Source: a virus. Taken from it: a DNA stretch of 31,463 nt. The stretch covers positions 1-31,463 of IMG/VR virus record IMGVR_UViG_3300009432_000029. One strand, written 5' to 3'. A model generated the notes under the pieces. The model saw only the letters and a program-made list of their open reading frames with translations, was not told the DNA's origin and made no database searches. The position numbers and the translations under genes are program-made. Positions 1 through 24,675 of this stretch are shown piece after piece (position 1 is the stretch's first letter; each line of letters begins with the position of its first letter).

Positions 1-57
1 GACCCCGACGCCCTAGTTATTGGGTATACAGTAGGTGCGGACAACAGAATGCTATGC

Positions 58-95
58 GTTATTTAAAAAGAACTAATCAATTCTTTTTAAATAAC
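58..95. terminator. Perfect AT-rich hairpin closing the leftward operon
   Basis: Two 15-base arms (58-72 and 81-95) are exact reverse complements around an 8-base loop. The hairpin lies 11 bases past the stop of the last minus-strand gene. A/T-rich arms give runs of A and T on both strands, so it could terminate transcription from either side. There is no GC-rich stem core, so termination strength is uncertain. Positions 1-57 show no gene I can support. Confidence 0.7.
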
Positions 96-106
96 CCACA
101 AGGGAG

Positions 107-379
107 TTATCGGTAGGTTTTCAGCGAGAAGTCCATAGTTTTGCCGCTAGCCTTGCGGTCTAAGTACCGTTGGTATCTAGCCGCATCTGGTTCGGTCACC
201 ATACCCTTGGTACATCTTGGGCAGTTCTGCTTGTATAGGGTTAACCTACCACTGCCCTTGCACTTCTTGCAGGTGTAAGGTGTGAATGTAGCAACTTTTG
301 CTACAGGTGTTTTTACACTTTCGCTGCCTAAATCAACAGCGGTTCTTGCTCTAAGTATTGCTTCTTGCATTAATGTCAT
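107..379 (-). CDS. Small zinc-ribbon protein, unknown function
   Basis: A 90-residue protein. The middle carries a CKKCKGSGR...CPRC pattern, a four-cysteine zinc-ribbon arrangement resembling the cysteine-rich repeat of DnaJ. The start is set at ATG 379 because AGGAG lies about 8 bases upstream; the longer reading frame to 442 runs back through a hairpin and lacks a good ribosome binding site. It is the last gene of the leftward operon, separated from the gene before it by a 10-bp stem hairpin and followed by the 58-95 hairpin. The zinc site suggests nucleic-acid or protein binding, but no function can be named. Confidence 0.75.
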   Translation of the reverse strand: MTLMQEAILRARTAVDLGSESVKTPVAKVATFTPYTCKKCKGSGRLTLYKQNCPRCTKGMVTEPDAARYQRYLDRKASGKTMDFSLKTYR

Positions 380-412
380 AGTTGTTCTCCTGAGTGTTAA
401 GAAATATCCATA

Positions 413-436
413 AAGGGTACTCAACTGAGTACCCTT
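413..436 (-). other. Intergenic 10-bp hairpin
   Basis: Arms 413-422 and 427-436 pair perfectly around a 4-base loop (AGTT on the minus strand). It sits between the stop of the 452-1564 gene and the ribosome binding site of the 107-379 gene. No T-tract follows, so an RNA processing or stabilising hairpin, or a weak attenuator, is likelier than a full terminator. Confidence 0.7.
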
Positions 437-451
437 GAGCATAACTCTTAC

Positions 452-1564
452 TTACGCTATCGCTTCGAGTTCAGTTTTAGCTGCGGCTGCTGCTTTAACT
501 AATTCCTCGTACAAGCTCTGTGTGCTTTTCTTACCATCACGGTTGCTACTTTCGTAACGTTCCATTTTGGTCAGCGCCGCTTCTAGGTCTTCTATTTTGT
601 CCTCATCAGTCTTTTCAGGGGGCACTTTGTTCAAGATGATTTTTGCATACATATCATTCGGCACATAAGACCAATGTTGAATCACATTCCAAAGGTCTAT
701 GTTGTCGAAAAGGCGCTCTGCATACGGTGCCAATAGTTCGTATTGACACAACTTATGCTCAAGCGCCTCTACTTCGTCTTGGTCAGCGATTAGGTACTGA
801 CCAACTTCCCACTGTTCGTCAGCACATTTGTTGAGCGCAGCATTGAGTTTCGCTCTTTTCAGGTCAACGTAAGCTGAGAAAGACCAAATAGACCCATCTT
901 CTTTTACTTCTGTCTTATGGTGTGACTTGTATGCCAAACCAAGCCAGAAGACAGCACCCATTATGGAACCTTGCTTCAGTTTCCCTTGCTTGTCTCGCTG
1001 AATGACTTTAGAGCATATAAAGTCATTATCTATTACCTTACTCGCAAGGGCTTCGTCAACCACGAGCCCCATTTGAGCCATGATGTGTCGCCCAGCCTCA
1101 AAGGCCATAGTCTCTTTGGTGAGACTATTATTGAGATACTCATCTAATTCCGCAGGTTCATGGTAGCCTTTCGTGGTTCCACTAACGCCGCTTTCATCGC
1201 GTATCCAACGCGTTAGTAGGCTGATTTGTGGCGTTGCGTGCAGCGGCGTCCCATATCTACCATTCTTTATGGCTTTAGTGTCCTCAACACTTGACCAAAG
1301 GCTACCTAGGTAGTCGAGCTCTAACTGTGTCACCTCTTTGGCGGCATATAGGCTCTTACTCAGACCCTTGAATACTTCGCCTAATACGTCTAAACCACCA
1401 CCGGTAGCCACAAGCACCGAAGCGGTGACCATGCTTTCACCGAAATGCGCTTTACACGCTTTTTCGTGATCCCAAACCAGACCACTTGTGGTCCATTTGA
1501 CATTGCTCTGCACATTGAATGAACGAGGCGCGTTTTTCTTTAATAAATCGTCGATATGTTTGAT
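452..1564 (-). CDS. Hypothetical protein, probable ATC start
   Basis: I do not recognise this protein. The longest frame from a standard start (GTG at 1513) gives 353 residues, but that GTG has no ribosome binding site. The open frame continues upstream for 17 codons with a natural-looking sequence (KHIDDLLKKNAPRSFN) to an ATC at 1562-1564, preceded at 6 bases by AAGGGG that overlaps the stop of the gene before it. I therefore propose initiation at ATC, giving 370 residues. The C-terminal third is rich in charged helix-forming residues (EDKIEDLEAALTKMER), suggesting a coiled coil. There is no signal peptide and no clear membrane segment. It may be co-translated with the 1575-2273 gene. If ATC is not used, the GTG form is the fallback. 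Confidence 0.7.
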   Translation of the reverse strand: MKHIDDLLKKNAPRSFNVQSNVKWTTSGLVWDHEKACKAHFGESMVTASVLVATGGGLDVLGEVFKGLSKSLYAAKEVTQLELDYLGSLWSSVEDTKAIKNGRYGTPLHATPQISLLTRWIRDESGVSGTTKGYHEPAELDEYLNNSLTKETMAFEAGRHIMAQMGLVVDEALASKVIDNDFICSKVIQRDKQGKLKQGSIMGAVFWLGLAYKSHHKTEVKEDGSIWSFSAYVDLKRAKLNAALNKCADEQWEVGQYLIADQDEVEALEHKLCQYELLAPYAERLFDNIDLWNVIQHWSYVPNDMYAKIILNKVPPEKTDEDKIEDLEAALTKMERYESSNRDGKKSTQSLYEELVKAAAAAKTELEAIA

Positions 1565-1574
1565 AAATTTCCCC

Positions 1575-2273
1575 TTATAGGAATCTAGTTAGGTTGGCTA
1601 CTTCTTTAACTTCGGCAGGCTTTTTAGCCATGAAGTCTCGGACGTATTTATTGATCTGTTGCTCTGTGAACACAGAAGGGCTGATGCCCCTTGCGCTGCA
1701 CACTTGCAACAAACTGCTAAGTGCGGCCCCTTGTTGTGGAGACCACGAGGTGAACTCGCGTCCAGTTTCACCGTGATCTTTTGGCTCAATGGTCAACGTG
1801 TAACCTCTTGATTCAGCTATTTGCTGAGTTTTAAGGTCTTCGTTGTCATCGAAGTGCATACCAGGCTTGGTAGGCCACCCATGAATCGGAGCGTGTGGGA
1901 CTTCAACACCACCCTCATGACGCGTGTCATACGGCATGTTAAAATCGCAAGTCCAACCTGCGTCATTCATACCGACGCCTTTCGGAGCTGAGCTATCCCC
2001 AACGGTGTAACCTCTCTTATCACCTATTGAGTATTCTTTCATACGATCAAAGGCTTTTTTGCCTATGACAGTAAGAGCGAGTAATTCGCCCGATATACCC
2101 GCGATTGCTTCCAGTCTTAGACGGGTTGCAAGATCTGCTTTCGCTTTTGCGATAGCTTGTACTTCTTTATCTAACCATGTAGTATTTGGCACGGTGCTTT
2201 CCTTTGTGTTGATTGGGTGTACTAGCGTGATGGCAGCTGCAACTGCCGTTGCGTGTTCTTTAGCTAAGTTCAT
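1575..2273 (-). CDS. Hypothetical protein with two possible starts
   Basis: A 232-residue protein of unknown function. ATG 2273 has a GGAGAG site 7 bases upstream and overlaps the stop of the 40-residue gene (ATGA), so translation is probably coupled. A second in-frame start, GTG at 2190-2192 (residue 28), has its own AAGGA about 7 bases upstream. Two isoforms are possible, differing by an alanine-rich N-terminus (MNLAKEHATAVAAAITLV). The central region is rich in Gly, Pro, His and Asp with a DAGWTCDFNMP stretch; the C-terminus is helical. The stop TAA overlaps the presumed ribosome binding site of the next gene. Confidence 0.75.
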   Translation of the reverse strand: MNLAKEHATAVAAAITLVHPINTKESTVPNTTWLDKEVQAIAKAKADLATRLRLEAIAGISGELLALTVIGKKAFDRMKEYSIGDKRGYTVGDSSAPKGVGMNDAGWTCDFNMPYDTRHEGGVEVPHAPIHGWPTKPGMHFDDNEDLKTQQIAESRGYTLTIEPKDHGETGREFTSWSPQQGAALSSLLQVCSARGISPSVFTEQQINKYVRDFMAKKPAEVKEVANLTRFL

Positions 2274-2392
2274 AGCTCACTCTCCTCTATTAGGGCCCTA
2301 ACTCTGGCCGCTTCTACAATATCTCCACAGACTACTGCCGTGAAGAAAGCTTTTAACAATGCACTTCGGACGTTCTTTGTTCTATAGACCAT
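2270..2392 (-). CDS. 40-residue small protein
   Basis: A short gene: ATG at 2390-2392, TGA at 2270-2272, 40 residues beginning MVYRTKNVRSALLKAFFTAV and ending VRALIEESEL. AAGGGG lies 6 bases before the start. The stop overlaps the next start as ATGA, a classic coupling junction. The composition suggests a basic N-terminus, one amphipathic or weakly hydrophobic helix and an acidic end. It is the first gene downstream of hammerhead ribozyme 1, so it would be the first open frame on the RNA released by cleavage. Function is unknown. Confidence 0.75.
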   Translation of the reverse strand: MVYRTKNVRSALLKAFFTAVVCGDIVEAARVRALIEESEL

Positions 2393-2429
2393 GATGGTCC
2401 CCTTTATGTGAGTTAATGTGAGTGAATCT

Positions 2430-2482
2430 GCCTCATCAGTGCCATGGGATTAGTCATGACAGACACCCGTAGGTGTTTCGGC
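2430..2482 (-). ncRNA. Type II hammerhead ribozyme 1
   Basis: Read on the minus strand from 2482 to 2430. Stem II 3' strand GCC (2482-2480); core GAA (2479-2477); stem III ACACC/GGUGU (2476-2472 with 2467-2463), including the required A15.1-U16.1 pair, capped by UACG; C17 at 2462; stem I UGUCAUG/CAUGGCA (2461-2455 with 2446-2440), 7 pairs including one G-U, with an 8-base loop; core CUGAUGA (2439-2433); stem II 5' strand GGC (2432-2430). Predicted cleavage is between 2462 and 2461. Stem II is open, making it type II, and only 3 bp long before an A-A mismatch. It begins 6 bases after the stop of the 2489-2713 gene. A second copy lies at 2742-2798. Confidence 0.92.
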
Positions 2483-2488
2483 TAGGGA

Positions 2489-2713
2489 CTAAAAGCCAAA
2501 CTCAAGGATGTACTCAACAGATGTACCGTCAGACTTATCGCAAATATAAGAGTTGTAACGAAAAGCGACATCGTTGACCTCACCACCAGACGCGACACAA
2601 TCGGCTGCGAAAGACTCAGTAGGTGAGTCGAAGAAGAAAGGGCGAATGTTGATAAGTACGATGATGACTGCAAATGCTGCAAATGCTGCGAATGGTGCTT
2701 TGTAATCTTCCAT
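2489..2713 (-). CDS. Small single-TM membrane protein
   Basis: A 74-residue protein. Residues about 8-27 (FAAFAAFAVIIVLINIRPFF) form one hydrophobic membrane segment; the remainder is acidic and polar with two cysteines (DCVASG and YICDK) that could form a disulfide if exported. It has no signal-peptidase site I can support. AAGGA lies 8 bases before the ATG. The gene sits between the two hammerhead ribozymes, so double cleavage would release it as a single-gene mRNA. Function is unknown; small phage membrane proteins often act in superinfection exclusion or lysis, but nothing here decides this. Confidence 0.75.
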   Translation of the reverse strand: MEDYKAPFAAFAAFAVIIVLINIRPFFFDSPTESFAADCVASGGEVNDVAFRYNSYICDKSDGTSVEYILEFGF

Positions 2714-2741
2714 AGTGTGTTCCTTTGTATTGAGTGAAGCT

Positions 2742-2798
2742 GCCTCATCAGTGCCATGCGCTTAGTCATGACAGACACCTATTTCTAGGTGTTTCGGC
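2742..2798 (-). ncRNA. Type II hammerhead ribozyme 2
   Basis: Read on the minus strand from 2798 to 2742. GCC (2798-2796), core GAA (2795-2793), stem III ACACCUA/UAGGUGU (2792-2786 with 2781-2775) capped by a GAAA tetraloop, C17 at 2774, stem I UGUCAUG/CAUGGCA (2773-2767 with 2758-2752) with an 8-base loop, core CUGAUGA (2751-2745), and GGC (2744-2742) closing stem II. All conserved catalytic-core positions are present. Predicted cleavage is between 2774 and 2773. It begins 5 bases after the stop of the 2804-3067 gene and ends about 28 bases before the next start. Stem III has 7 pairs, two more than in copy 1. Confidence 0.93.
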
Positions 2799-2803
2799 TG
2801 GTG

Positions 2804-3067
2804 TTAGTTTGCATACATCGCTTGCCACATTCGCAGTAGCTCCCGGAAGGTAGCCATGTGGTTGTGCAACAATGCGTACTGCATCTTCAAGGACACGGTG
2901 TCCTTGAACCCGTGCTCCTCAACCATGCTCTTTCGCAGCACGGAGCTGTCGAAGTAGCAAACACCGGAGTACATGGTCACGATAACGCTGTGCTCCATAA
3001 CTCTGATGTGCGGACGGCCTATGCCGTACTTGTTTCCCGATACGCCTGTGTAGACTGATGAAGTCAT
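2804..3067 (-). CDS. Hypothetical protein, paralogue A
   Basis: An 87-residue protein starting MTSSVYTGVSG, chosen because GAGGAG lies 6 bases upstream of ATG 3067. It is a diverged paralogue of the protein at 3165-3440: both share MTSS.YTG..G.KYGI.RPH.R near the start, HGFKD in the middle and MYA at the end. No known domain is recognised. It follows two strong hairpins (3105-3158) and is itself followed within 5 bases by hammerhead ribozyme 2. An in-frame upstream ATG (MFEENS) exists in both paralogues, but its codons are the ribosome binding site, so it is unlikely to be used. Confidence 0.75.
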   Translation of the reverse strand: MTSSVYTGVSGNKYGIGRPHIRVMEHSVIVTMYSGVCYFDSSVLRKSMVEEHGFKDTVSLKMQYALLHNHMATFRELLRMWQAMYAN

Positions 3068-3104
3068 ACTGTTCTCCTCGAACATGGAACAGATGCGAAA
3101 GTGC

Positions 3105-3158
3105 ATCACAATACACACCACATAGGTATGTATTGTGATACCCACTCGCTAGTGGGTA
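3105..3158 (-). other. Tandem intergenic hairpins
   Basis: Two adjacent inverted repeats fill the gap between the paralogues. One has 15-base arms (3105-3119 and 3125-3139, one G-U pair in RNA) and a 5-base loop. The other has 8-base arms (3139-3146 and 3151-3158) with the 4-base loop AGCG on the minus strand. No U-tract follows. They could be RNase III-type processing sites or stabilise the mRNA end of the upstream gene. No hammerhead core is present here. Confidence 0.65.
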
Positions 3159-3164
3159 GGTGGG

Positions 3165-3440
3165 CTATGCGTACATAGCATCGTATATAGGCTTATTGCT
3201 CTCGAACGTATACGTGTCGCCTTGCGTCAACGCGTATTCTAGTTCTAATGCGAATGCATCCTTGAAGCCGTGCTTTCTAATATCGCGTCTGCTCAACACT
3301 GCACTATGGACTTTCTCCAACTCACCATCTGAGTCGGTGGTCACCATAGTCATGATGACGCACCACTTGTTGTAGCGTACATGTGGACGGTCGATGCCGT
3401 ACTTAGAACCGTGAACGCCTGTGTAGATTGATGAAGTCAT
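3165..3440 (-). CDS. Hypothetical protein, paralogue B
   Basis: A 91-residue protein beginning MTSSIYTGVHG at ATG 3440, with GAGGAG 6 bases upstream. It is probably the first gene of the leftward operon. It is a paralogue of the 2804-3067 protein, more similar at the N-terminus (KYGI.RPH.R) than in the middle. The leader and first codons of the two genes are nearly identical over about 45 bases, including the ribosome binding site, so the duplication included the translation start region. Function is unknown. Confidence 0.75.
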   Translation of the reverse strand: MTSSIYTGVHGSKYGIDRPHVRYNKWCVIMTMVTTDSDGELEKVHSAVLSRRDIRKHGFKDAFALELEYALTQGDTYTFESNKPIYDAMYA

Positions 3441-3673
3441 ACTGTTCTCCTCGAACATGAAAGGGACCCAAAGTAGGTTCAATGGGCTAAACTGCAACGA
3501 CTCTCTCCAGGATTGGAAACGAACCGAGGGTGCCACTGACGAGCGACACATACATAACAATCACTCAGTAATGTTCCCAAAACGGACGGAAAACGTTTTT
3601 CCACTTTCAATTTTTTTTATTTTTTATTAGAACAGTGTTACTATTGACATACTCCAACAGTAGGAAACACTCA
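3441..3673. promoter_or_regulatory. Divergent control region between leftward and rightward operons
   Basis: A 233-base gap with no supported gene. It should hold the promoter of the leftward operon and the first promoter of the rightward packaging block. Visible elements are a near-palindrome GGAAAACGTTTTTCC at 3588-3602, a T-rich tract at about 3611-3627, and a copy of the recurrent AACAGT motif at 3631-3645. On the minus strand a weak TTGGGA box with a TTATGT box 17 bases downstream lies near 3580-3555; this promoter call is tentative. Confidence 0.5.
3631..3645 (+). promoter_or_regulatory. AACAGT motif copy 1
   Basis: AACAGT-GTT-ACTATT followed by GACAT, 28 bases before the small terminase start. 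It is one of five related intergenic copies (also 5910, 10486, 17311 and 24684). One base departs from a perfect inverted repeat. It may be a phage promoter element or operator. Confidence 0.5.
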
Positions 3674-4177
3674 ATGACCCAACAAACATTGGCTGGACTC
3701 AGCGGGCAATACTCAGCTCTCGGCATCCAACGACTATCGATTCAGGAAGAAGTCTATGTCCAAAGACGAACGCAAGGACTCAACCCATTAGCTGCTGCTC
3801 GTGCTGCATCCTATGAAAAACCCGCTAAAGCAGTTGCTCTTCTTTCAGAGAGAGAGGACGTTAATTTATGCATCTCTTACATGCGTGAAATGTCCAGACA
3901 AGTTGCTATAAATTCCGGTGCAATAGATTTCACTAAAGACGATGCAACCTGCTTGTATTTAGAGGCGCATTCGACTAGCGAAACATCAGCAGAGAAGATT
4001 CGAGCGGTAGACTCACTGGTTAAACTGCACGGTCTTGCTACACCTGAGAAGGTAGAAATTAACGTGACTAACAGAGGTCAGATGGATCAGCTTGATGATG
4101 AAGCGTTACTTAAATTATCAGGACAGGATATCCAACTATCTCCGGACGATTACATGGTGATAGAAAATGATAACTAG
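3674..4177 (+). CDS. terS: Terminase small subunit
   Basis: A 167-residue protein directly ahead of, and overlapping by 11 bases, the large terminase gene. The N-terminal half (IQEEVYVQRRTQGLNPLAAA followed by ASYEKPAKAV) reads as a helix-turn-helix DNA-binding region typical of small terminases. The middle contains a helical segment (EKIRAVDSLVKLHGL) seen in the oligomerisation part of many family members; the C-terminus is acidic. The protein is expected to recognise the packaging site and regulate the large subunit. The start is ATG 3674, with TAGGA about 9 bases upstream. The assignment rests on architecture and position, not on catalytic residues. Confidence 0.85.
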   Translation: MTQQTLAGLSGQYSALGIQRLSIQEEVYVQRRTQGLNPLAAARAASYEKPAKAVALLSEREDVNLCISYMREMSRQVAINSGAIDFTKDDATCLYLEAHSTSETSAEKIRAVDSLVKLHGLATPEKVEINVTNRGQMDQLDDEALLKLSGQDIQLSPDDYMVIENDN

Positions 4178-5891
4178 AGTATGTGATGAGTGTAGAAAGA
4201 CCGTTGATAGGTTTCTTATGTATGACTCCGACCATTGTATGGAATGTGCTAAAGACCTAGACCTGTTTGTTCAGCCTGATAATCGCCAAAAGGTTTCTAA
4301 CATTGAGAAAGAGCAAGAGCGCGTCGCTGAAGAGAATGAAGAAGCGTTTAACAAGCAAGCTGAAGCAAAGAAAGAACTGGCGGAAAGAGCTTTATCACGA
4401 AGACGATTGCTCCCATTTATTAAGCGCGTAAATCCTGATTACATACCAGGGTGGGTTCATGCAGATATATGTGAACGATTAGAACGTTTCGCTATTGCCA
4501 TAGAAAATGGTGAGTCACCTAGGCTCATGATCACGATGCCCCCAAGACACGGCAAAAGTGAGATAGGCTCGAAAACATTCCCCTCTTGGTATCTCGGACG
4601 TAACCCGAAACATGAAGTGATGGTCTGCTCATACTCAGGAGATTTAGCGAAGGATTTCTCTCGTAAATGTCGTGACTTACTAGAGAACCCTAAGTACCAG
4701 TCGATGTTCAAAACCAGACTGTCAAAAGATAGTAAATCGGTAGAACGTTGGAATACATCAGCACAAGGCGCATTTACCGCAGCAGGTGTTGGTGGACCAA
4801 TAACAGGTCGTGGTTGTTCCCTTGGTATTATTGATGACCCTGTGAAAAACAGGGAAGAGGCAGAGTCAGAAACTACCCGACAAAATGTTAAAGATTGGTA
4901 CTCATCAGCGTTTTATACACGTCTTGCACCAGGAGGCGGGATTTTGGTCATACAAACCCGTTGGCATGATGATGACTTATCGGGGTGGTTACTCAATACA
5001 TTGGATGAAGCTAAGAAAGAAGCCGTGGAAGCAGGTTCACCATTAGACCCTTCAGTGGATAATTGGGAACTTGTTGAGTATCCGGCAATAGCGACACATG
5101 ACGAGAAATACAGACTCAAAGGGGATGCACTTCACGCAGACCGTTACCCAATAGAAGCATTGAATAAGATTAAACGAAACATGATCCCCCGAGATTGGGA
5201 GGCACTCTACCAACAAAAACCTGTGAGCGATGACGGTGACTACTTTACAAAATCGATGTTCAAGTATTACAAGCCCGGAGATTCACCGCCTCTCAATGAG
5301 ATGCGAATATACGCTGCTGCCGATTTGGCTATCTCTACTAAACAGACTGCCGATTACACTGTGTTTACCGTTGTTGGCATTGATAGAGAACAAAATATTT
5401 GGATCATCGATGTTATACGAGGTCGTTGGAATGCTTTGGGTCTTATTGACCGCTTGTTTGGTATACAAGAAAAATACAACCCCGAATTGTTTGGTATTGA
5501 GACAGGACAGATAGAATTAACACTTGAGCCGTTTATTATGAAAGCGGAACAGGAAAGAGGTCTATCGCTTCGCTATGAGAAACTAAGAACACGCGGCGTC
5601 GATAAAGGGACACGCGCTCGACCCATACAAGGCCGAATGGAACAGGGTAAGGTTTACTTCCCCACTGTTGAGTCGGTCCCGTGGATGTCAAGCCTCCAGA
5701 ACGAGTTATTGAAGTTTCCGTTAGGTAAAAACGATGACCAAGTGGATTCATTAAGTTGGATCGGACAAATGATAATGCTCTTCGGTATCCGTAATGAGAA
5801 GAAGGTAAAACCTAAAAAATCATGGAAAGACAAGCTTAAACAATACGGCGGTGGTAACAACGGCAAACATAAAAGTGGCATGGCTGCGTAA
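4167..5891 (+). CDS. terL: Terminase large subunit
   Basis: A 574-residue DNA-packaging motor and headful nuclease. The ATPase half shows the Walker A-type motif MPPRHGKSE (residues 124-132), Walker B LGIIDDP (219-225) and TRWHDDD (264-270) as the coupling segment. The nuclease half starts near ADLAIS with Asp386 as a likely metal ligand, and NDDQVDSLSW near the C-terminus supplies further acidic residues typical of the RNase H-like fold. An extra N-terminal four-cysteine cluster (Cys6, Cys9, Cys24, Cys27) looks like a small zinc finger, unusual for terminases. The start codon lies within the end of the small-subunit gene, so expression is probably coupled. Confidence 0.95.
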   Translation: MITRVCDECRKTVDRFLMYDSDHCMECAKDLDLFVQPDNRQKVSNIEKEQERVAEENEEAFNKQAEAKKELAERALSRRRLLPFIKRVNPDYIPGWVHADICERLERFAIAIENGESPRLMITMPPRHGKSEIGSKTFPSWYLGRNPKHEVMVCSYSGDLAKDFSRKCRDLLENPKYQSMFKTRLSKDSKSVERWNTSAQGAFTAAGVGGPITGRGCSLGIIDDPVKNREEAESETTRQNVKDWYSSAFYTRLAPGGGILVIQTRWHDDDLSGWLLNTLDEAKKEAVEAGSPLDPSVDNWELVEYPAIATHDEKYRLKGDALHADRYPIEALNKIKRNMIPRDWEALYQQKPVSDDGDYFTKSMFKYYKPGDSPPLNEMRIYAAADLAISTKQTADYTVFTVVGIDREQNIWIIDVIRGRWNALGLIDRLFGIQEKYNPELFGIETGQIELTLEPFIMKAEQERGLSLRYEKLRTRGVDKGTRARPIQGRMEQGKVYFPTVESVPWMSSLQNELLKFPLGKNDDQVDSLSWIGQMIMLFGIRNEKKVKPKKSWKDKLKQYGGGNNGKHKSGMAA

Positions 5892-17364: not shown

Positions 17365-20300
17365 ATGCTTTCAGAAGAACTTAGGCTAAAACTACAACGC
17401 GCTGCGGCGGCAAACAACTCACCAAATGATACCCGCAAAACGAATGTGGTTCTCGACGATGGCGATAGTGGTAATGAACGTCTTAATTATAACGGCGTTC
17501 GAGCCAAAGGCTTTAACTCCCCTGAAACAGATCACAACGACGGGCGAACAGATGCGCACGCTGACGGAAAGCTGTCCAAAGAACTGTCGGAGAGACTCCA
17601 AAAAGAAGGGGCCTATTTCAAAAGCACAGGTAAACGCGGTACTTACGGTCGTGAACTAGCAGAGTTTAAAGATGGGTCAGGTCGTGACCTGTCTACAGAT
17701 TTAGTCGCATCAGGCATGGCTTGGGCAGATCGCTCAGAAAAAAGTGCAGATGCCGAGTTGTCAGGTATCAAAAGCAGAGCGTTGGGCGATGGTAAAACAG
17801 GAAACGCTACCATAGATGAATTCGCTGCTCGAAAAAGCAAGGAATACTTCGACCCTTTCAGCAAAGCCACTTACGATGGTAACTCTTACGATAGACGCGG
17901 CACATTTAATAAAGCCTTCTCGCGCGGTACAGACCAAACCAAAGCAGCCCTTGGCGGTGTAATTAACTACATTGGCGATGCAACGGGTAACAAAGAGTGG
18001 GTCGCCGATGGTAAGCGCATGACGCGTGACGCTAATGTAGATGCGAAACTAAACCCTAGAGAAATAGAGGATTACACCAAAGCCACTAAGTCTTTGGACA
18101 CCGCATTTACCTACCTTGTTGAATCAGTGGGCGAAATGGCTCCAGGTCTAATCTTTGATGCAATTGCAACGGTCGCTACAGGTGGTATCGGTGCTACTCA
18201 AGCTGTTGCTCGAAGAGCAGGAACAGAAGCAATTAAAGCAGGTTTCAAAAAAGGCTTGATTAGTGGCCCTGCCCTGACAGGTTTTACCCAGAGTTTGGGT
18301 GATATGGAGAACGCACTAGAAGCTCGTGGTAGCGAAGAAAACGGTTTTGCACCTATTGCATCAGGTTTGGTTGGAGCGGCTGTTAATTTAGCCCCTTATG
18401 CAGCCATAGCGGGTGATGTACTTCGTTCTGCGGGACTCGGTGATGATGTAGTTAGATCTGTCACCAAGGCAATGGATAAGGTGGAGAAGAAATCAAAATT
18501 ATCTAGATTAGGGGACGTTGGTAAAGCAGGTGTAAAAGCAGGTGGAACAGAAGGTATCACTGAAACGGCTCAAATGGTTATCGATGAGGTCATCCTAGCT
18601 AATGCGTCAGATACAGGTTTTGATTTAAAGACCCAAGATGCCATAGATGGGGCAATCCGTGCAGTTCTTGGCGGTGGTGCTATGGGTGCAGGAGCATCAG
18701 GTATTGGTAACGCAGCAGGTATTATGAGTGAATATAATGCCGAGCGTGCGCAATTCGATGATGCGGGAAACCGTAAAAACGAAGACGGTCTTCTTGTTGA
18801 TGAGAATGGCGATCCAATAGCAGAAACCAATGAGTACGAAGTCGACACTAACCCATTAGCGCAAGAAGATGAAGATTCAATAGCATGGGCAGTTGAGCAA
18901 GAAATCGATGAAAACTCAGAGATTGACCCTTGGAAAGCATGGGAAGATGTAGTTGGACACGAACTTGCTCCCAGTCCTTTTGGCGAAACGGAGGGGAATC
19001 AAGTAGGTGGAGAGGTTGAAGAATCTTCACGGGCCAGTTACGGGAAAAAAGATGTCCCTAACCTCAAGACAACCCGCTACAACGAAATCAAAGGCATCCT
19101 TGAACCCAACGGTAAGAAAGTCACTCTGAAAGAGCTAAAGACTATAATAGCTAGCGGCACGGTTACGGACAAAGAACTCGCGCAGTACCTAGGCGATGAC
19201 ATGCAGAGTACGGCCAATAGTATCTATGGTAATTTTGACAGAGAGAAAAATGACCGTTTAAAAATACGAGCATTAGATATTACTATAGAAAAAGTACGTG
19301 ATGGCATCGTGAAGGCCTCCGATGAAACAAAAGCCCTACTCGTTAAAGCGCAGGATACATTAACTGTTGGCGACATCAATAAAGCACTTGATGCGGTCAA
19401 CCCCCTTATAAACAGGTTAGCGGGTAAACGTTCGGTTAAATATGATACTCGTGCCATGTGGCAGGAGTACACAGGCGAGTCCACAACGACTAAAGATTCG
19501 GCGAAAGAGTCTTCGGACTTTACGTCGACCGGTGAAACGAATAAGCCCGGTGATAAACGGTTTAACGAGGCTGCCGAAAGTGGCGCGATTAATCGAGATA
19601 AGAATGCAGCAGATATTGCCAGGAACAACGAAGCTAGAGAATCAAAAGAAAGCGACATGGCGACGGATGATGCGGAAGATAATGTCCAGAGCGTTGACCC
19701 TCTAATATTAGATCGCATCGACAATAAGCACGAGCGAGAACGTTTTATTCTGGACGGAATAATCAACTCCGACGGAGAAGATACGAACACAGGTGAAGAG
19801 TCCCAGATAAATGGCACTAAGCGCAGCGTCACCCTAGAACACGGGGGTACGGTTAGGATAGAAAACAGTGCTCGGGCTACAGTCACCGAAGCAGACGGTA
19901 ATGTCTACATCATAAAGTCTGGTACACAAGAAGTTTCTGCGGGCAGCACAGTTACGATGCGCGGTAAGAACCGAAAGAACAAAGGCAAGCACCCTGTTTT
20001 TATTACTCATAATCATTCCGGAGTGACGCAGGATAAAGCTATGGTTGCTGTGAGTGAGTTGGACGAAGTAGATAAGGCCACTAAACTAGGCGACATTAAG
20101 CACCTTGTTAAAGAATACCTTCCAGATGATATGGCCAGTGGGCTTACGGGAGATACCAAATTAGCAATTATTAAGCGTATGTTGAAAAACGAAATATACA
20201 AGAAAGGCAACCCAACGATTGATGTTGATACGCCTAACACGGATTTGCCACCTAAAAAAGAGAATGCACCTAAGAAGCTAGGCACGCTCACTAGGAAAAC

Positions 20301-23300
20301 CGTTAAAGAGGAAGAAGCTGGGTCTAAACGTAAACGTGTCGCTGCGGATAAGAAATTAGCGGAGGACAAAGAACTTTCTCAGGCAGAGTTAGAAGAACGC
20401 AAGCTAGAACGGACCAACACTAGGAAAGCCAAAGAAAAGAAAAAAGCAACAGAACAAGCGGAAACTAATGAAGGAAGATACGCTGATAGTAGAGCGGCGC
20501 TTGAGGCAACGATAGACGCGCAGGTAGAGGCGGCCATTCACAAGTTGGACAACCCTGAATCTGCTACCGATGCGGAAGCGCGGCGCGCGTTGTCTAAAGA
20601 AAAAAGGGAGAACGCCAAAGCGGCAAAAGCCGAGCAATTGGAAGCCGAAAAGAATCGCAAACCCGGCAAACCCGTTATTAAGGTTACGGCGGAGACTATT
20701 GCGAAAAGGAAGTATAAACATTTGGTGCGCGATTTACGCACTATCGTGAGTGCAGCTAAATCAGGCGACCTTGACGCACAAGAATTCCTGAAGACGTTTG
20801 CTAAGTACAGTACCGATCCAAAAGCGCAAGTGGTGCTAAAGCAAGCGGTAAAAGACCAAGCAGAACGTATCCTCACTGACTCGCTTACCGAAGGTAAGAT
20901 GTATGATTTCAACGAGAAAGCCATCGGTGATGAGGAGTCTGGCGACGCAGACGGTTCGGGTCTTAATGTTACTAAGCGTGCTGAAGGTTTTGTGGCTATA
21001 GGCGACGAGATGTCACCTAAAGAAAGATTGGTCAATGAAGCGGGCTTTAAAGCGCAAGTTGCCGACCTCCTGAATCAATTATTTACAGGTGGAATACTGC
21101 AAGTGTCCCCAAAAACGTTGCAGATTTTTGCCTACGAGCTAACTAAGTCAGTCGGCGGTATGAAGAAGCGTGCCGGTGGTAAGGGTGCAGAGAATTCGAT
21201 ACACCCGCTAAATGTGGTTGCTGAGTCCGAGAATGCAAAAGGCGGCAATTTCACCGCGCGTGATAGCGTCGCTAACGGCAGACCTACAAAACTACTTACC
21301 CGAAGAACTATTGATAAGTTAAATAAACTAGTAAATGACGGTAAGTTTGATGAAGCGAAAACACACTTAATCGAGTTAGGCTTATTTGCAGAAGGGTACG
21401 TTGTGGGTGACATGCCTAAAGTGGCATTTGAAACTAGCACTAGGCGTTTGGTTCGTCAGTCGGGTAATGAGCTACACCACGGCACTACAACTATGAATGA
21501 GAATATCGTGGTAAGTAGTGATAACCCAAGGGATAAAGTGGTTAACGCCCAAGGTCTTGTGGAGATAGGGCTTAAAAAGAATCAAATTAACATCGATGAT
21601 ATTATAAACGATGGTAATGGATCGCAAGAAAGTGACACTCACTACCGTAAAGCAATTTTTGAGGGCCTCATCGCAGGTGTTGCAGCTCTCCGCGATATGG
21701 GCATAGACATAGATTGGAACACTATCCCCCAAGAAACTATTCTTTGGAAACTCCCTGATGGGGACAAACGAGCCAATAAGCTTAAAGAATTTACGCTCGG
21801 TGACGCTAGGCAATGGGAAAAAGCCCGTGCGGAGTATGTCAACAGTAAAACTGCGGAGGCTAAAAGCGAAAAGGCTAAAGAGCACGCGGAGACTATTGCC
21901 CGAGAAGAGCATGAAACAAATACCCAACAGGAAGTTAATAAACGGTTTGCTAAATGGCAGAAGACTAGTCGTACAGGCAAAGACCCTAAAGCCGCAGGTT
22001 CGCAGTTCCTACGCATACGAAAACAGGTTGAGGCCTCGCTTAAAGGGGACATTGATACTAGGTTAGCGGAGATTGAGGAAGAGTTTGCCAGTGGCAAGGT
22101 TACTCGTGAAACCAGTAAGTATGGCGACGAAGAGGGAGACATATACAGTGTTGATGAGTTCAGCGAGTATGAGGGCCCTAAAGATGATTACCTCGAAGGC
22201 AATGGACGCGAAAATGAGGGCGTAACGGGTGTCGAAGCCGTAAATCAGGTGGATGTAAAAGGTTTCAACAAACCTAGACCAATCTACAGTACCCCAGATG
22301 TAGCGGGTGGTGTTCTTTCTAATAGGATAGAGGGACAACTGGCGACCGATGAAAAAGACAACGGTCTTAGGGATTCATCGCCTAAAATTGAGGGGGAAAC
22401 AGATTCAGACCGCGATGCACGGTTAGACAGTTCCGATAGGATGAAAGCAGAAGGTACAATAAGAAGCCGCGAAGGGCTTGAGGGAGATAACGTAGTAAGT
22501 GATGTTGCTTCAGCTAAAAAAGTCCTCGACGAACTGGATGCCTACGTACAAGATAAAAAGCAAACGGATAAGGCGCGAGAAGCATTGGGTAACGAGTCTT
22601 CGGACGCTGCAACTAAAAATCGCCGTGACGCTGACCAAGACCAGAAAAAGGCGGACACGGTAGAAGAACCTATTCGCCCCAAGGGCACAATGTCTAAAGA
22701 ACGTGCACGCCTAGAACAAGAGCTAACACCAGAGCAACTTGAGTCCAGGGAAAAAGCAGAGAAGATTCTTGAAGATGCGTTAGAAGTAGCCTTCGTCGAA
22801 TCTGCCGGAGCGCCTAAGTTTTCAAAGGGGCGTAAGCTTCAGCGGGAACGCAAGTTAATCAAAGAAGTCCGTTATAAAAGAGCCGCAGCAAGAAAAGGTA
22901 TATTCAGAATTGTTGAGATGGTGCATACGCGTATTAACCGTATCCATCCAGAACTGGGTGAGTTTGCGCGTAAGTTCCTCAATGACAAGACCGATCAGAC
23001 CGAGTACCTTATATCACGCATGTCTAAACTCGCGGGGGATAAAGACGCGATACAGCGTGGCCACGACGACCTTATCGCAGGGCGTGATACCCAAGATGCT
23101 AAGAACTATTTAGCTTTTCAAGCGGAAGTGGATGCTCATGTCAGTCAATTCGACCCTTCGCATAAAGCAAAGAAAGGCGTTCGTAGCCATTTGGACATTG
23201 CCGCGATTGATAAAGACCGTCAGGGTTTCTTGAAAATATTAGCAGAAGCGGGCATCAAAGATGGCCACAAAATACTTGAGGATGCTTTCGACGGAGAAGG

Positions 23301-24675
23301 TATTCCTGAGTGGGCTATCAATCCTAATGCAAACAAAAGTACGTACAACAAACTCGACAGGTTAGACGGTGTAATGGACGCTTTGCGAGATGGCGGGTTT
23401 CTAGATACCGATGCGCCTCGGCACTTAACCAACTATATTAATGCCGCAGCAACATGGGCGAGTTGGAATAAGCACTCCGCTATTGAGGGAGATTCGCACG
23501 CTAACTTCAACCGTCTTTTCTCAGAAGTTCACCCAAGCAACAAAGGTGAGGCAACACGGTTATTCCACGGGATAACAGGTAAGAACGGTATCAGTACACC
23601 GCCTTGGGTACGTAAATTTAACTCAGCGGTCATGGCGTTTCAGTCGGCTACTATTATGTGGTTCTCGGCTGTTGCAAGTATTCCAGAGTTGGCAGGTATC
23701 TATTCACGAGGTCGAGGAACTATTGATGGTGTGGGATCTGACTTTGCAAAACTTCTCACGGGTAGAGGGCGTGATGAGCTTCGTAAAATAGCTACGGATT
23801 ACGACATAATTTCAGGTGAAGTTACCGAACATGCGTTACAGCGTTTGATGGCTATGGATGATTTAACGACGGGTCGTCTTTCGCAGAAAGTGACTAACAC
23901 AGTATTTAAGATGAACGGCCAAATATGGCTTACTGAGATTAACCGGGCTTTGGCGACTTCAGTGGCTAAACGTTTCTTGGAGCATCATGCTAACAGCAGC
24001 GATCCATCTTCAAAGCGTATGCTAGAAGAGCTAGGTACAGACAGCAAAACGGTCAATGATTACCTTAAATCGGGTGATATAACATCACCGGCGGGTCGTA
24101 ACTATAGAGATGCGGCGCACCGGTTCGTCAATGAGTCAGTCACTAACCCTACCCGTGGTCAAGTCCCGTTGATTGCCTCTGACCCGCGTTTTATGATACT
24201 TAGCACTTTGAAGAAATTCTTTTACGGTTTCTATGATAACGTGCACAAAGGTCTGTACCGTAACTTGAAAGCTTCAAAAGCAGAACAGAAGCAGATGGAA
24301 GCAATTAAAGCGATGCTCATTACAGGCGCGATCATACTACCTTTGGCGGCACTTGCAGAGATTATTAGGGAAGAAATCAAGTATCCACTTGGCAGACCTA
24401 CCGATAAGAAAAAGTCGCTTACCGACCATTTGATTAATGTGGTTGGGGCTTCAGGGGCTTTAGGTCCAATGCAAATGGCACAGAATGCTTCGGAGATGTC
24501 GCAGTATGGTCGCAACCCTGCGGTGGTTTTAGCTGGGCCGATGGTCTCATTCGGTGTGGATGCGGTGAACGGTAAGCTGCGTCCTAGTAACGTTATGCCA
24601 TTAGTCAATCAATTACCTTGGATGGCTACACCAGTCAACAAGACCATTAAGAATATGAGAGGCGAAAAAGAATAG
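17365..24675 (+). CDS. Giant ejection protein with SNase-like domain
   Basis: A 2436-residue protein. Residues about 25-130 resemble staphylococcal nuclease: DDGD (31-34), R46, NSPE (51-54), YGRELA (94-99) and LVASGMAW (113-120). The usual acidic residue of the D-T-P-E motif is Asn51 here. Hydrophobic stretches near 257-275 and 327-353, EGITETAQ (about 396) and a Gly-rich segment (431-452) follow. Residues about 500-1900 are highly charged, mostly helical and low in hydrophobics. The C-terminus has hydrophobic helices near 2086-2112 and 2317-2334. Size, place and membrane segments suggest the large channel-forming ejection protein (gp16-like role), carried in the capsid and injected with DNA; no lysozyme or transglycosylase motif was found. 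Ribosome binding is weak, with a terminator just upstream. Confidence 0.75.
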   Translation: MLSEELRLKLQRAAAANNSPNDTRKTNVVLDDGDSGNERLNYNGVRAKGFNSPETDHNDGRTDAHADGKLSKELSERLQKEGAYFKSTGKRGTYGRELAEFKDGSGRDLSTDLVASGMAWADRSEKSADAELSGIKSRALGDGKTGNATIDEFAARKSKEYFDPFSKATYDGNSYDRRGTFNKAFSRGTDQTKAALGGVINYIGDATGNKEWVADGKRMTRDANVDAKLNPREIEDYTKATKSLDTAFTYLVESVGEMAPGLIFDAIATVATGGIGATQAVARRAGTEAIKAGFKKGLISGPALTGFTQSLGDMENALEARGSEENGFAPIASGLVGAAVNLAPYAAIAGDVLRSAGLGDDVVRSVTKAMDKVEKKSKLSRLGDVGKAGVKAGGTEGITETAQMVIDEVILANASDTGFDLKTQDAIDGAIRAVLGGGAMGAGASGIGNAAGIMSEYNAERAQFDDAGNRKNEDGLLVDENGDPIAETNEYEVDTNPLAQEDEDSIAWAVEQEIDENSEIDPWKAWEDVVGHELAPSPFGETEGNQVGGEVEESSRASYGKKDVPNLKTTRYNEIKGILEPNGKKVTLKELKTIIASGTVTDKELAQYLGDDMQSTANSIYGNFDREKNDRLKIRALDITIEKVRDGIVKASDETKALLVKAQDTLTVGDINKALDAVNPLINRLAGKRSVKYDTRAMWQEYTGESTTTKDSAKESSDFTSTGETNKPGDKRFNEAAESGAINRDKNAADIARNNEARESKESDMATDDAEDNVQSVDPLILDRIDNKHERERFILDGIINSDGEDTNTGEESQINGTKRSVTLEHGGTVRIENSARATVTEADGNVYIIKSGTQEVSAGSTVTMRGKNRKNKGKHPVFITHNHSGVTQDKAMVAVSELDEVDKATKLGDIKHLVKEYLPDDMASGLTGDTKLAIIKRMLKNEIYKKGNPTIDVDTPNTDLPPKKENAPKKLGTLTRKTVKEEEAGSKRKRVAADKKLAEDKELSQAELEERKLERTNTRKAKEKKKATEQAETNEGRYADSRAALEATIDAQVEAAIHKLDNPESATDAEARRALSKEKRENAKAAKAEQLEAEKNRKPGKPVIKVTAETIAKRKYKHLVRDLRTIVSAAKSGDLDAQEFLKTFAKYSTDPKAQVVLKQAVKDQAERILTDSLTEGKMYDFNEKAIGDEESGDADGSGLNVTKRAEGFVAIGDEMSPKERLVNEAGFKAQVADLLNQLFTGGILQVSPKTLQIFAYELTKSVGGMKKRAGGKGAENSIHPLNVVAESENAKGGNFTARDSVANGRPTKLLTRRTIDKLNKLVNDGKFDEAKTHLIELGLFAEGYVVGDMPKVAFETSTRRLVRQSGNELHHGTTTMNENIVVSSDNPRDKVVNAQGLVEIGLKKNQINIDDIINDGNGSQESDTHYRKAIFEGLIAGVAALRDMGIDIDWNTIPQETILWKLPDGDKRANKLKEFTLGDARQWEKARAEYVNSKTAEAKSEKAKEHAETIAREEHETNTQQEVNKRFAKWQKTSRTGKDPKAAGSQFLRIRKQVEASLKGDIDTRLAEIEEEFASGKVTRETSKYGDEEGDIYSVDEFSEYEGPKDDYLEGNGRENEGVTGVEAVNQVDVKGFNKPRPIYSTPDVAGGVLSNRIEGQLATDEKDNGLRDSSPKIEGETDSDRDARLDSSDRMKAEGTIRSREGLEGDNVVSDVASAKKVLDELDAYVQDKKQTDKAREALGNESSDAATKNRRDADQDQKKADTVEEPIRPKGTMSKERARLEQELTPEQLESREKAEKILEDALEVAFVESAGAPKFSKGRKLQRERKLIKEVRYKRAAARKGIFRIVEMVHTRINRIHPELGEFARKFLNDKTDQTEYLISRMSKLAGDKDAIQRGHDDLIAGRDTQDAKNYLAFQAEVDAHVSQFDPSHKAKKGVRSHLDIAAIDKDRQGFLKILAEAGIKDGHKILEDAFDGEGIPEWAINPNANKSTYNKLDRLDGVMDALRDGGFLDTDAPRHLTNYINAAATWASWNKHSAIEGDSHANFNRLFSEVHPSNKGEATRLFHGITGKNGISTPPWVRKFNSAVMAFQSATIMWFSAVASIPELAGIYSRGRGTIDGVGSDFAKLLTGRGRDELRKIATDYDIISGEVTEHALQRLMAMDDLTTGRLSQKVTNTVFKMNGQIWLTEINRALATSVAKRFLEHHANSSDPSSKRMLEELGTDSKTVNDYLKSGDITSPAGRNYRDAAHRFVNESVTNPTRGQVPLIASDPRFMILSTLKKFFYGFYDNVHKGLYRNLKASKAEQKQMEAIKAMLITGAIILPLAALAEIIREEIKYPLGRPTDKKKSLTDHLINVVGASGALGPMQMAQNASEMSQYGRNPAVVLAGPMVSFGVDAVNGKLRPSNVMPLVNQLPWMATPVNKTIKNMRGEKE

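What the first reader, a model, noticed from the sequence alone, without database searches (positions are those of the whole stretch)
2742..2798. Complete type II hammerhead ribozyme directly after a stop codon
Every conserved core position is present on the minus strand: CUGAUGA, GAA, the A-U pair closing stem III, and C at the cleavage site (2774/2773). Stem III has 7 pairs with a GAAA tetraloop, stem I has 7 pairs. It begins 5 bases after the stop of the 2804-3067 gene, inside a probable polycistronic RNA, so it should cut the operon transcript. Hammerheads in phage and bacterial DNA are known; this copy's setting between operon genes is what deserves attention.
Basis: partly seen in the sequence, partly recalled or inferred. 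Interest (0 to 1): 0.95.

Follow-up and report, generated by a model that had tools for sequence, protein, structure and literature searches.

The report
Paired hammerhead ribozymes between phage genes
This phage fragment carries not one but two self-cutting RNAs (type II hammerheads), each placed just after one gene's stop codon and just before the next gene's start, where they should cut a long messenger RNA into gene-sized pieces; this is a new example of an arrangement already known in phages.

Summary
Rfam's Hammerhead_II model matches window 2799..2734 (minus strand) at 49.7 bits (E=1.6e-7), and core, stems and cleavage site C2774/U2773 are as stated. A second type II hammerhead lies at 2483..2422 (41.3 bits), and both copies have a 4-bp loop I/3'-tail pseudoknot that differs between them by a compensatory change (AAGC/GCUU versus AAUC/GAUU). 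The copies flank a 74-codon ORF, so double cleavage would release a 312-nt single-gene RNA.

The setting is not peculiar to this phage. Perreault 2011 described clustered hammerheads flanking prophage genes, this pseudoknot, and cleavage in E. coli of one cloned cluster. I surveyed 134 type II hammerheads from viral contigs. In 99, the ribozyme starts within -3..+10 nt of the upstream gene's stop codon (random positions 3.9%; stemless decoys 4/77), and the next start lies about 28 nt after the core. Close phage relatives lack the ribozymes, so they are a lineage-specific feature of a variable gene island.

Most likely function (inferred): co-transcriptional splitting of an operon mRNA, leaving hairpin-capped 5'-OH and 2',3'-cyclic-phosphate ends. 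Cleavage was not tested. New member of a known kind; the stop-abutting rule is the more useful product.

The parts
2734..2799 (-). Type II hammerhead ribozyme, copy 1 (whole Rfam footprint). Stem II 2798-2796/2744-2742; GAA 2795-2793; stem III 2792-2786/2781-2775 with GAAA loop 2785-2782; stem I 2773-2767/2758-2752; CUGAUGA 2751-2745; expected cleavage C2774|U2773
   Evidence: Rfam RF02276 49.7 bits, E=1.6e-7; MFE equals the hammerhead fold, -19.4 kcal/mol
2737..2763 (-). Pseudoknot of copy 1: loop I A2763 A2762 G2761 C2760 with tail U2737 U2738 C2739 G2740
   Evidence: Sequence; compensatory difference from copy 2; class-wide test: 73% of surveyed ribozymes have at least 4 WC pairs here versus 25% with shuffled tails
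2422..2483 (-). Stem III 5 bp with UACG loop, stem I 7 bp, expected cleavage C2462|U2461
   Evidence: Rfam RF02276 41.3 bits, E=2.6e-5; MFE of the isolated strand equals the hammerhead fold; 49-nt repeat 94% identical to copy 1
2425..2451 (-). Pseudoknot of copy 2: loop I A2451 A2450 U2449 C2448 with tail U2425 U2426 A2427 G2428
   Evidence: Sequence
2489..2713 (-). 74-codon ORF (gene B, hydrophobic N-terminus) enclosed between the two ribozymes; SD-like AAGGA at 2725-2721
   Evidence: no Pfam or PHROGs match
2462..2773 (-). Predicted 312-nt RNA released if both ribozymes cut: 5'-OH at U2773, 2',3'-cyclic phosphate at C2462, containing gene B only
   Evidence: Inference from the two cleavage sites
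2804..3067 (-). 87-codon ORF (gene A) upstream of copy 1; TAA at 2806-2804; paralogue of 3165-3440 (45% identity)
2270..2392 (-). 40-codon ORF (gene C) downstream of copy 2; SD-like AAGGGG at 2404-2399
   Evidence: Sequence
107..2273 (-). Rest of the minus-strand operon: ORFs 1575-2273, 452-1513 and 107-379 (DnaJ-like zinc motif), partly syntenic in relatives that lack the ribozymes

Best explanation
Two functional type II hammerhead ribozymes sit in consecutive intergenic gaps of a phage minus-strand operon (gene A - copy 1 - gene B - copy 2 - gene C ...). Each should fold as the transcript emerges, be locked by the loop I/3'-tail pseudoknot, and cut once (C2774|U2773 and C2462|U2461). Because type II has closed stems I and III, each cut leaves a hairpin on both new ends. 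The upstream message ends about 30 nt after its own stop codon in the stem III hairpin with a 2',3'-cyclic phosphate. The downstream message begins with 5'-OH and the stem I hairpin ahead of its Shine-Dalgarno. The operon mRNA is thereby split into gene-sized messages without creating non-stop mRNAs and with ends likely to resist 5'-monophosphate-dependent and 3' exonucleolytic decay, comparable to what RNase III sites do in T7 early mRNA. Shown: sequence, structure, second copy, covariation, position. Inferred: cleavage in the cell, protection of ends, effect on expression.
For: Two Rfam matches above gathering score. Both isolated strands fold as hammerheads. The two copies differ at 3 of 49 positions and two of those are pseudoknot partners changed together. 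Pseudoknot pairing is enriched across the class. Position: 99 of 134 viral type II hammerheads lie -3..+10 nt from an upstream stop versus 3.9% of random positions, and 9/17 structured versus 4/77 stemless decoys in bacterial genomes. Start codon lies a median 27.5 nt after the core. Literature: tandem hammerhead clusters cleave in vitro, and one cloned cluster cleaves in E. coli (PMC3088659).
Against: No cleavage assay or transcript-end data. Close relatives run the same operon without ribozymes, so the cuts are not essential to this phage type. In context, copy 2 has a competing 7-bp hairpin (UUUGGCU/AGCCGAA) and the MFE there is not the ribozyme. Perreault notes 4 of 18 consensus-fitting candidates were inactive.
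Confidence: 0.72

Rival explanations
1. Translation-gated cutting: because the ribozyme's 5' strand starts at the stop codon, a terminating ribosome covers the GCCGAAA strand and blocks folding, so only transcripts not currently being translated to the end of the upstream gene are cut. The ribozyme then reports translation of the upstream gene.
For: Class-wide abutment to, and even overlap with, the stop codon (21 of 134 at gap -1, 20 of them TAG whose G starts stem II). A terminating ribosome's footprint of roughly a dozen nt (general knowledge) would cover the core strand. Copy 2 has a competing hairpin spanning its stop codon.
Against: Tight packing alone could give the same spacing, since the downstream side is also tight. 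No class-wide enrichment of upstream complement to the ribozyme strand. No functional data.
Confidence: 0.2
2. Selfish or drifting intergenic repeats: the ribozyme is a small unit that copies itself between intergenic gaps of a phage and is kept because it is harmless.
For: Within one phage 51% of copy pairs exceed 70% identity in the variable part versus 7% between phages, while the 40 nt upstream are little more alike than between phages. Patchy: absent from close relatives. Flanked genes are of no constant family.
Against: Compensatory change in the window and conserved catalytic core argue for selection on structure. Positioning exactly between stop and SD is not what blind insertion gives. 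No transposition gene or target repeat seen. Not exclusive of the best explanation.
Confidence: 0.2
3. RNA-circle producer: the two cuts free a 312-nt RNA with 5'-OH and 2',3'-cyclic phosphate, the ends an RtcB-type ligase joins, giving a circular gene-B message (retrozyme-like).
For: Two same-strand ribozymes 312 nt apart with compatible ends.
Against: No reverse transcriptase, LTR or repeat unit seen. Perreault looked for circular or spliced products of tandem clusters and found none. Retrozymes use type I or III (PMC7761336).
Confidence: 0.05
4. Chance or decayed motif without activity.
For: Not assayed; in-context fold of copy 2 unfavourable.
Against: E=1.6e-7 and 2.6e-5, two copies, covarying pseudoknot, class-typical position.
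Confidence: 0.05

Closest known systems
Type II hammerhead ribozyme, Rfam RF02276 (Perreault et al. 2011, PMC3088659)
   Same: Core, topology (stems I and III closed, stem II open), loop I/3'-tail pseudoknot, phage setting, clusters flanking single genes
   Different: Nothing structural. Gene neighbours differ; no activity test here
Tandem hammerheads of the Agrobacterium tumefaciens cluster around ardA (PMC3088659)
   Same: Several ribozymes flanking individual genes of one polycistronic RNA; active when transcribed in E. coli
   Different: Two copies rather than three, and different genes
HHphage of haloviruses HF1/HF2 (PMC3088659)
   Same: Ribozyme shortly upstream of a phage gene's start; in HF1/HF2 the mapped transcript 5' end lies within 3 nt of the cleavage site
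   Different: HHphage is a core variant at the first ORF of a polycistronic transcript, not between operon genes
RNase III processing sites of T7 early mRNA (general knowledge)
   Same: Same logic: intergenic cuts producing gene-sized phage mRNAs with hairpin ends
   Different: Protein enzyme; 5'-phosphate/3'-OH ends instead of 5'-OH/cyclic phosphate

Membership tests
Type II hammerhead ribozyme (RF02276) | Covariance-model score above gathering cut-off | tested here: met
   49.7 and 41.3 bits versus 37
Type II hammerhead ribozyme (RF02276) | Invariant core CUGAUGA, GAA, A15.1-U16.1, H17 at cleavage site | tested here: met
   Alignment; sequence
Type II hammerhead ribozyme (RF02276) | Stems I and III closed by loops, stem II open | tested here: met
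   MFE structures
Type II hammerhead ribozyme (RF02276) | Loop I/3'-tail pseudoknot (common, not obligatory) | tested here: met
   4 bp in both copies with one compensatory change; class-wide enrichment
Type II hammerhead ribozyme (RF02276) | Self-cleavage after C17 | not testable with these tools
   Needs in vitro transcription or RNA-end sequencing
Clustered phage hammerheads flanking genes (Perreault 2011, Fig. 3) | Two or more same-strand hammerheads flanking single genes or short gene blocks of a phage operon | tested here: met
   Copies at 2734-2799 and 2422-2483 around ORF 2489-2713
Retrozyme | Type I or III hammerheads in direct repeats or LTRs of a retroelement | tested here: not met
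   Type II; the enclosed unit is a gene; no other hammerhead in the window; no matching repeat structure in 1-4200

The most novel reading that the evidence does not exclude
Phage type II hammerheads as a class are translation-gated: they are built onto the stop codon of the upstream gene so that a terminating ribosome decides whether the operon mRNA is cut, coupling message splitting to translation of the upstream gene. This window's pair, one copy with a competing hairpin across its stop codon, would be an instance.
Probability: 0.18. Interest if true: 0.75.

Novelty: new member of a known kind. Interest (0 to 1): 0.42.

Why it matters
What phage hammerheads do has been open since 2011. The window adds a clean two-copy case with a compensatory change that argues for function. 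The survey behind it gives a quantitative placement rule (stop codon, ribozyme, Shine-Dalgarno, start) that I did not find stated in the papers I could search. That rule makes specific predictions about mRNA ends, and about whether terminating ribosomes control the cut.

Tried and rejected
Anti-ribozyme switch: copy 2 shows a 7-bp hairpin between the end of gene B and the ribozyme's 5' strand, but upstream complement of 7 or more pairs is not clearly enriched across about 130 ribozymes (2.3% versus 1.3%; at 5 or more it is lower than control), so it is not a general feature.

Same ribozyme lineage elsewhere: an exact-pattern scan for the window's stem I/core found nothing. Genes 2804-3067 and 1575-2273 have no relatives in viral contigs at the sensitivity used.

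Ribozymes in relatives: none by Rfam in 17 terminase-bearing loci, and none by relaxed motif search in all loci fetched by terminase.

Type I or III hammerheads in the surveyed type II loci: none found by motif.

Streptomyces phage Samy, found by similarity to a surveyed locus, has no Rfam hammerhead there.

Flanked-gene function: no dominant family among 90 upstream and 83 downstream proteins; a few anti-restriction, replication and transposase genes. A tRNA or tmRNA in the window: none.

Full report
WHAT IS THERE. Scanning the whole 31,463-base window with Rfam 15 gives exactly two RNA-family matches, both Hammerhead_II (RF02276) on the minus strand: 2799..2734 (49.7 bits, E=1.6e-7) and 2483..2422 (41.3 bits, E=2.6e-5); the gathering score is 37. 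Energy folding of the isolated strands returns the hammerhead fold for both copies.

The second copy sits in the next intergenic gap, after the TAG of ORF 2489-2713. The two copies share a 49-nt stretch that is 94% identical, whereas the neighbouring genes do not resemble each other. Of the three differing positions, two are partners: loop I AAGC pairs with tail GCUU in copy 1, and loop I AAUC pairs with tail GAUU in copy 2. This is the loop I/3'-tail pseudoknot of Perreault et al. 2011, which they showed to be needed for fast cleavage (PMC3088659). A two-sided compensatory change between copies in one genome is evidence that the structure is selected. The stem III loops also differ (GAAA and UACG), with stem lengths 7 and 5.

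SURROUNDINGS. The window is a virus record of 31,463 bases. The plus strand carries packaging and structural genes (terminase phrog_38, portal phrog_156). The minus strand carries an operon: paralogous small ORFs 3165-3440 and 2804-3067 (45% identity), ribozyme 1, ORF 2489-2713, ribozyme 2, a 40-codon ORF 2392..2270, ORFs 1575-2273 and 452-1513, and a DnaJ-like zinc-motif ORF. None of the small genes matches Pfam or PHROGs. Relatives with 75-77% identical terminase keep parts of the operon's leader and some of its later genes but have different small genes and no hammerhead. The ribozymes are therefore part of a variable, lineage-specific gene island.

HOW TYPICAL IS THE SETTING. A motif scan of IMG/VR stopped at 120 loci. 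Requiring both closed stems left 134 non-identical type II hammerheads, including the window's two, with up to 7 in one locus. In 99 of 134 the ribozyme lies between -3 and +10 nt from the stop codon of an upstream same-strand ORF of at least 50 codons; the commonest gaps are 0 and -1, and at -1 the G of TAG is the first base of stem II. Random positions in the same loci give 3.9% (binomial p about 1e-108). Counting one ribozyme per locus, 67 of 89 fit. In an independent scan of bacterial genomes, 9 of 17 matches with stems fit, against 4 of 77 matches without stems. The next start codon with an SD-like motif lies a median of 27.5 nt after CUGAUGA, and the whole intergenic region has a median of 85 nt: the gap is essentially ribozyme plus ribosome-binding site. 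Caveats: the sample is truncated, ORFs are mechanical, and for the window's copy 2 the script scored a spurious ORF's TAG at gap -1, although the real gene's TAG at gap 6 also falls in the range.

OTHER CLASS FEATURES. Loop I/tail complementarity of at least 4 Watson-Crick pairs occurs in 73% of the set against 25% with shuffled tails. Copies within one phage are much more alike than copies from different phages (51% versus 7% of pairs above 70% identity) while their upstream flanks are barely so, which suggests that the ribozyme is duplicated or homogenised as a unit without its genes. Flanked genes are of many kinds, with no dominant family.

MECHANISM. Most likely each ribozyme cuts the nascent operon RNA once. 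Type II topology is suited to this: the cut separates stem III from stem I, so the upstream message ends in a closed hairpin with a cyclic phosphate and the downstream message starts with a closed hairpin and 5'-OH. The position just after the stop keeps the upstream reading frame and its stop intact. With both copies active, a 312-nt message (2773..2462) holding only the 74-codon gene is released. The protective role of the ends and any effect on expression are inferred. A more interesting possibility is that a terminating ribosome, which should cover the ribozyme's 5' strand, blocks the cut and couples it to translation; the position fits but is also explained by tight packing, and a search for a general upstream anti-ribozyme sequence was negative. 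Copy 2 does have an idiosyncratic 7-bp competing hairpin across its stop codon, and its in-context minimum-energy fold is not the ribozyme (-24.9 versus -16.0 kcal/mol without the pseudoknot), so copy 2 may be slower or conditional.

COMPARISON AND NOVELTY. Perreault et al. 2011 already report that multiple hammerheads flank individual genes or short gene blocks in prophages, propose processing into gene-length mRNAs, describe this pseudoknot, and show cleavage of tandem clusters in vitro and of one cluster cloned and transcribed in E. coli. The window is a new member of that kind. The stop-codon rule was not found in the papers I could search, but the library lacks most subscription journals, so I do not claim priority.

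VERDICT. Real, very likely functional, and of a known kind; interest moderate.

Noticed in passing
window 3090-3166 (-): The gap between the two paralogous ORFs 3165-3440 and 2804-3067 holds two strong hairpins (-34.5 kcal/mol, z=-5.5), one with a 12-14 bp stem that looks like an RNase III-type site, where the next two gaps have ribozymes instead.
   Followed up: partly
window 50-104 (-): A 17-bp A/T-rich hairpin follows the last minus-strand ORF, probably the operon's 3' end or a bidirectional terminator.
   Followed up: partly
window 3435-3640 (-), with L123, L124, L126: The operon's leader is partly conserved in relatives whose first genes differ, with an invariant TGAACCTACTT block shortly before the first start codon; function unknown.
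   Followed up: partly
window 2480-2503 (-): The end of gene B (UUUGGCU) is complementary over 7 bp to the 5' strand of ribozyme copy 2 (AGCCGAA), with the stop codon in the loop; a possible copy-specific brake on cleavage.
   Followed up: yes
L012, L016, L105, L058: Phage contigs with 5-7 type II hammerheads in successive intergenic gaps, often near-identical while flanking genes differ.
   Followed up: partly
window 17365-24675 (+): A single 2436-codon ORF with a weak N-terminal staphylococcal-nuclease-like match (Pfam E=0.0013, below cut-off), possibly a large internal virion protein.
   Followed up: no
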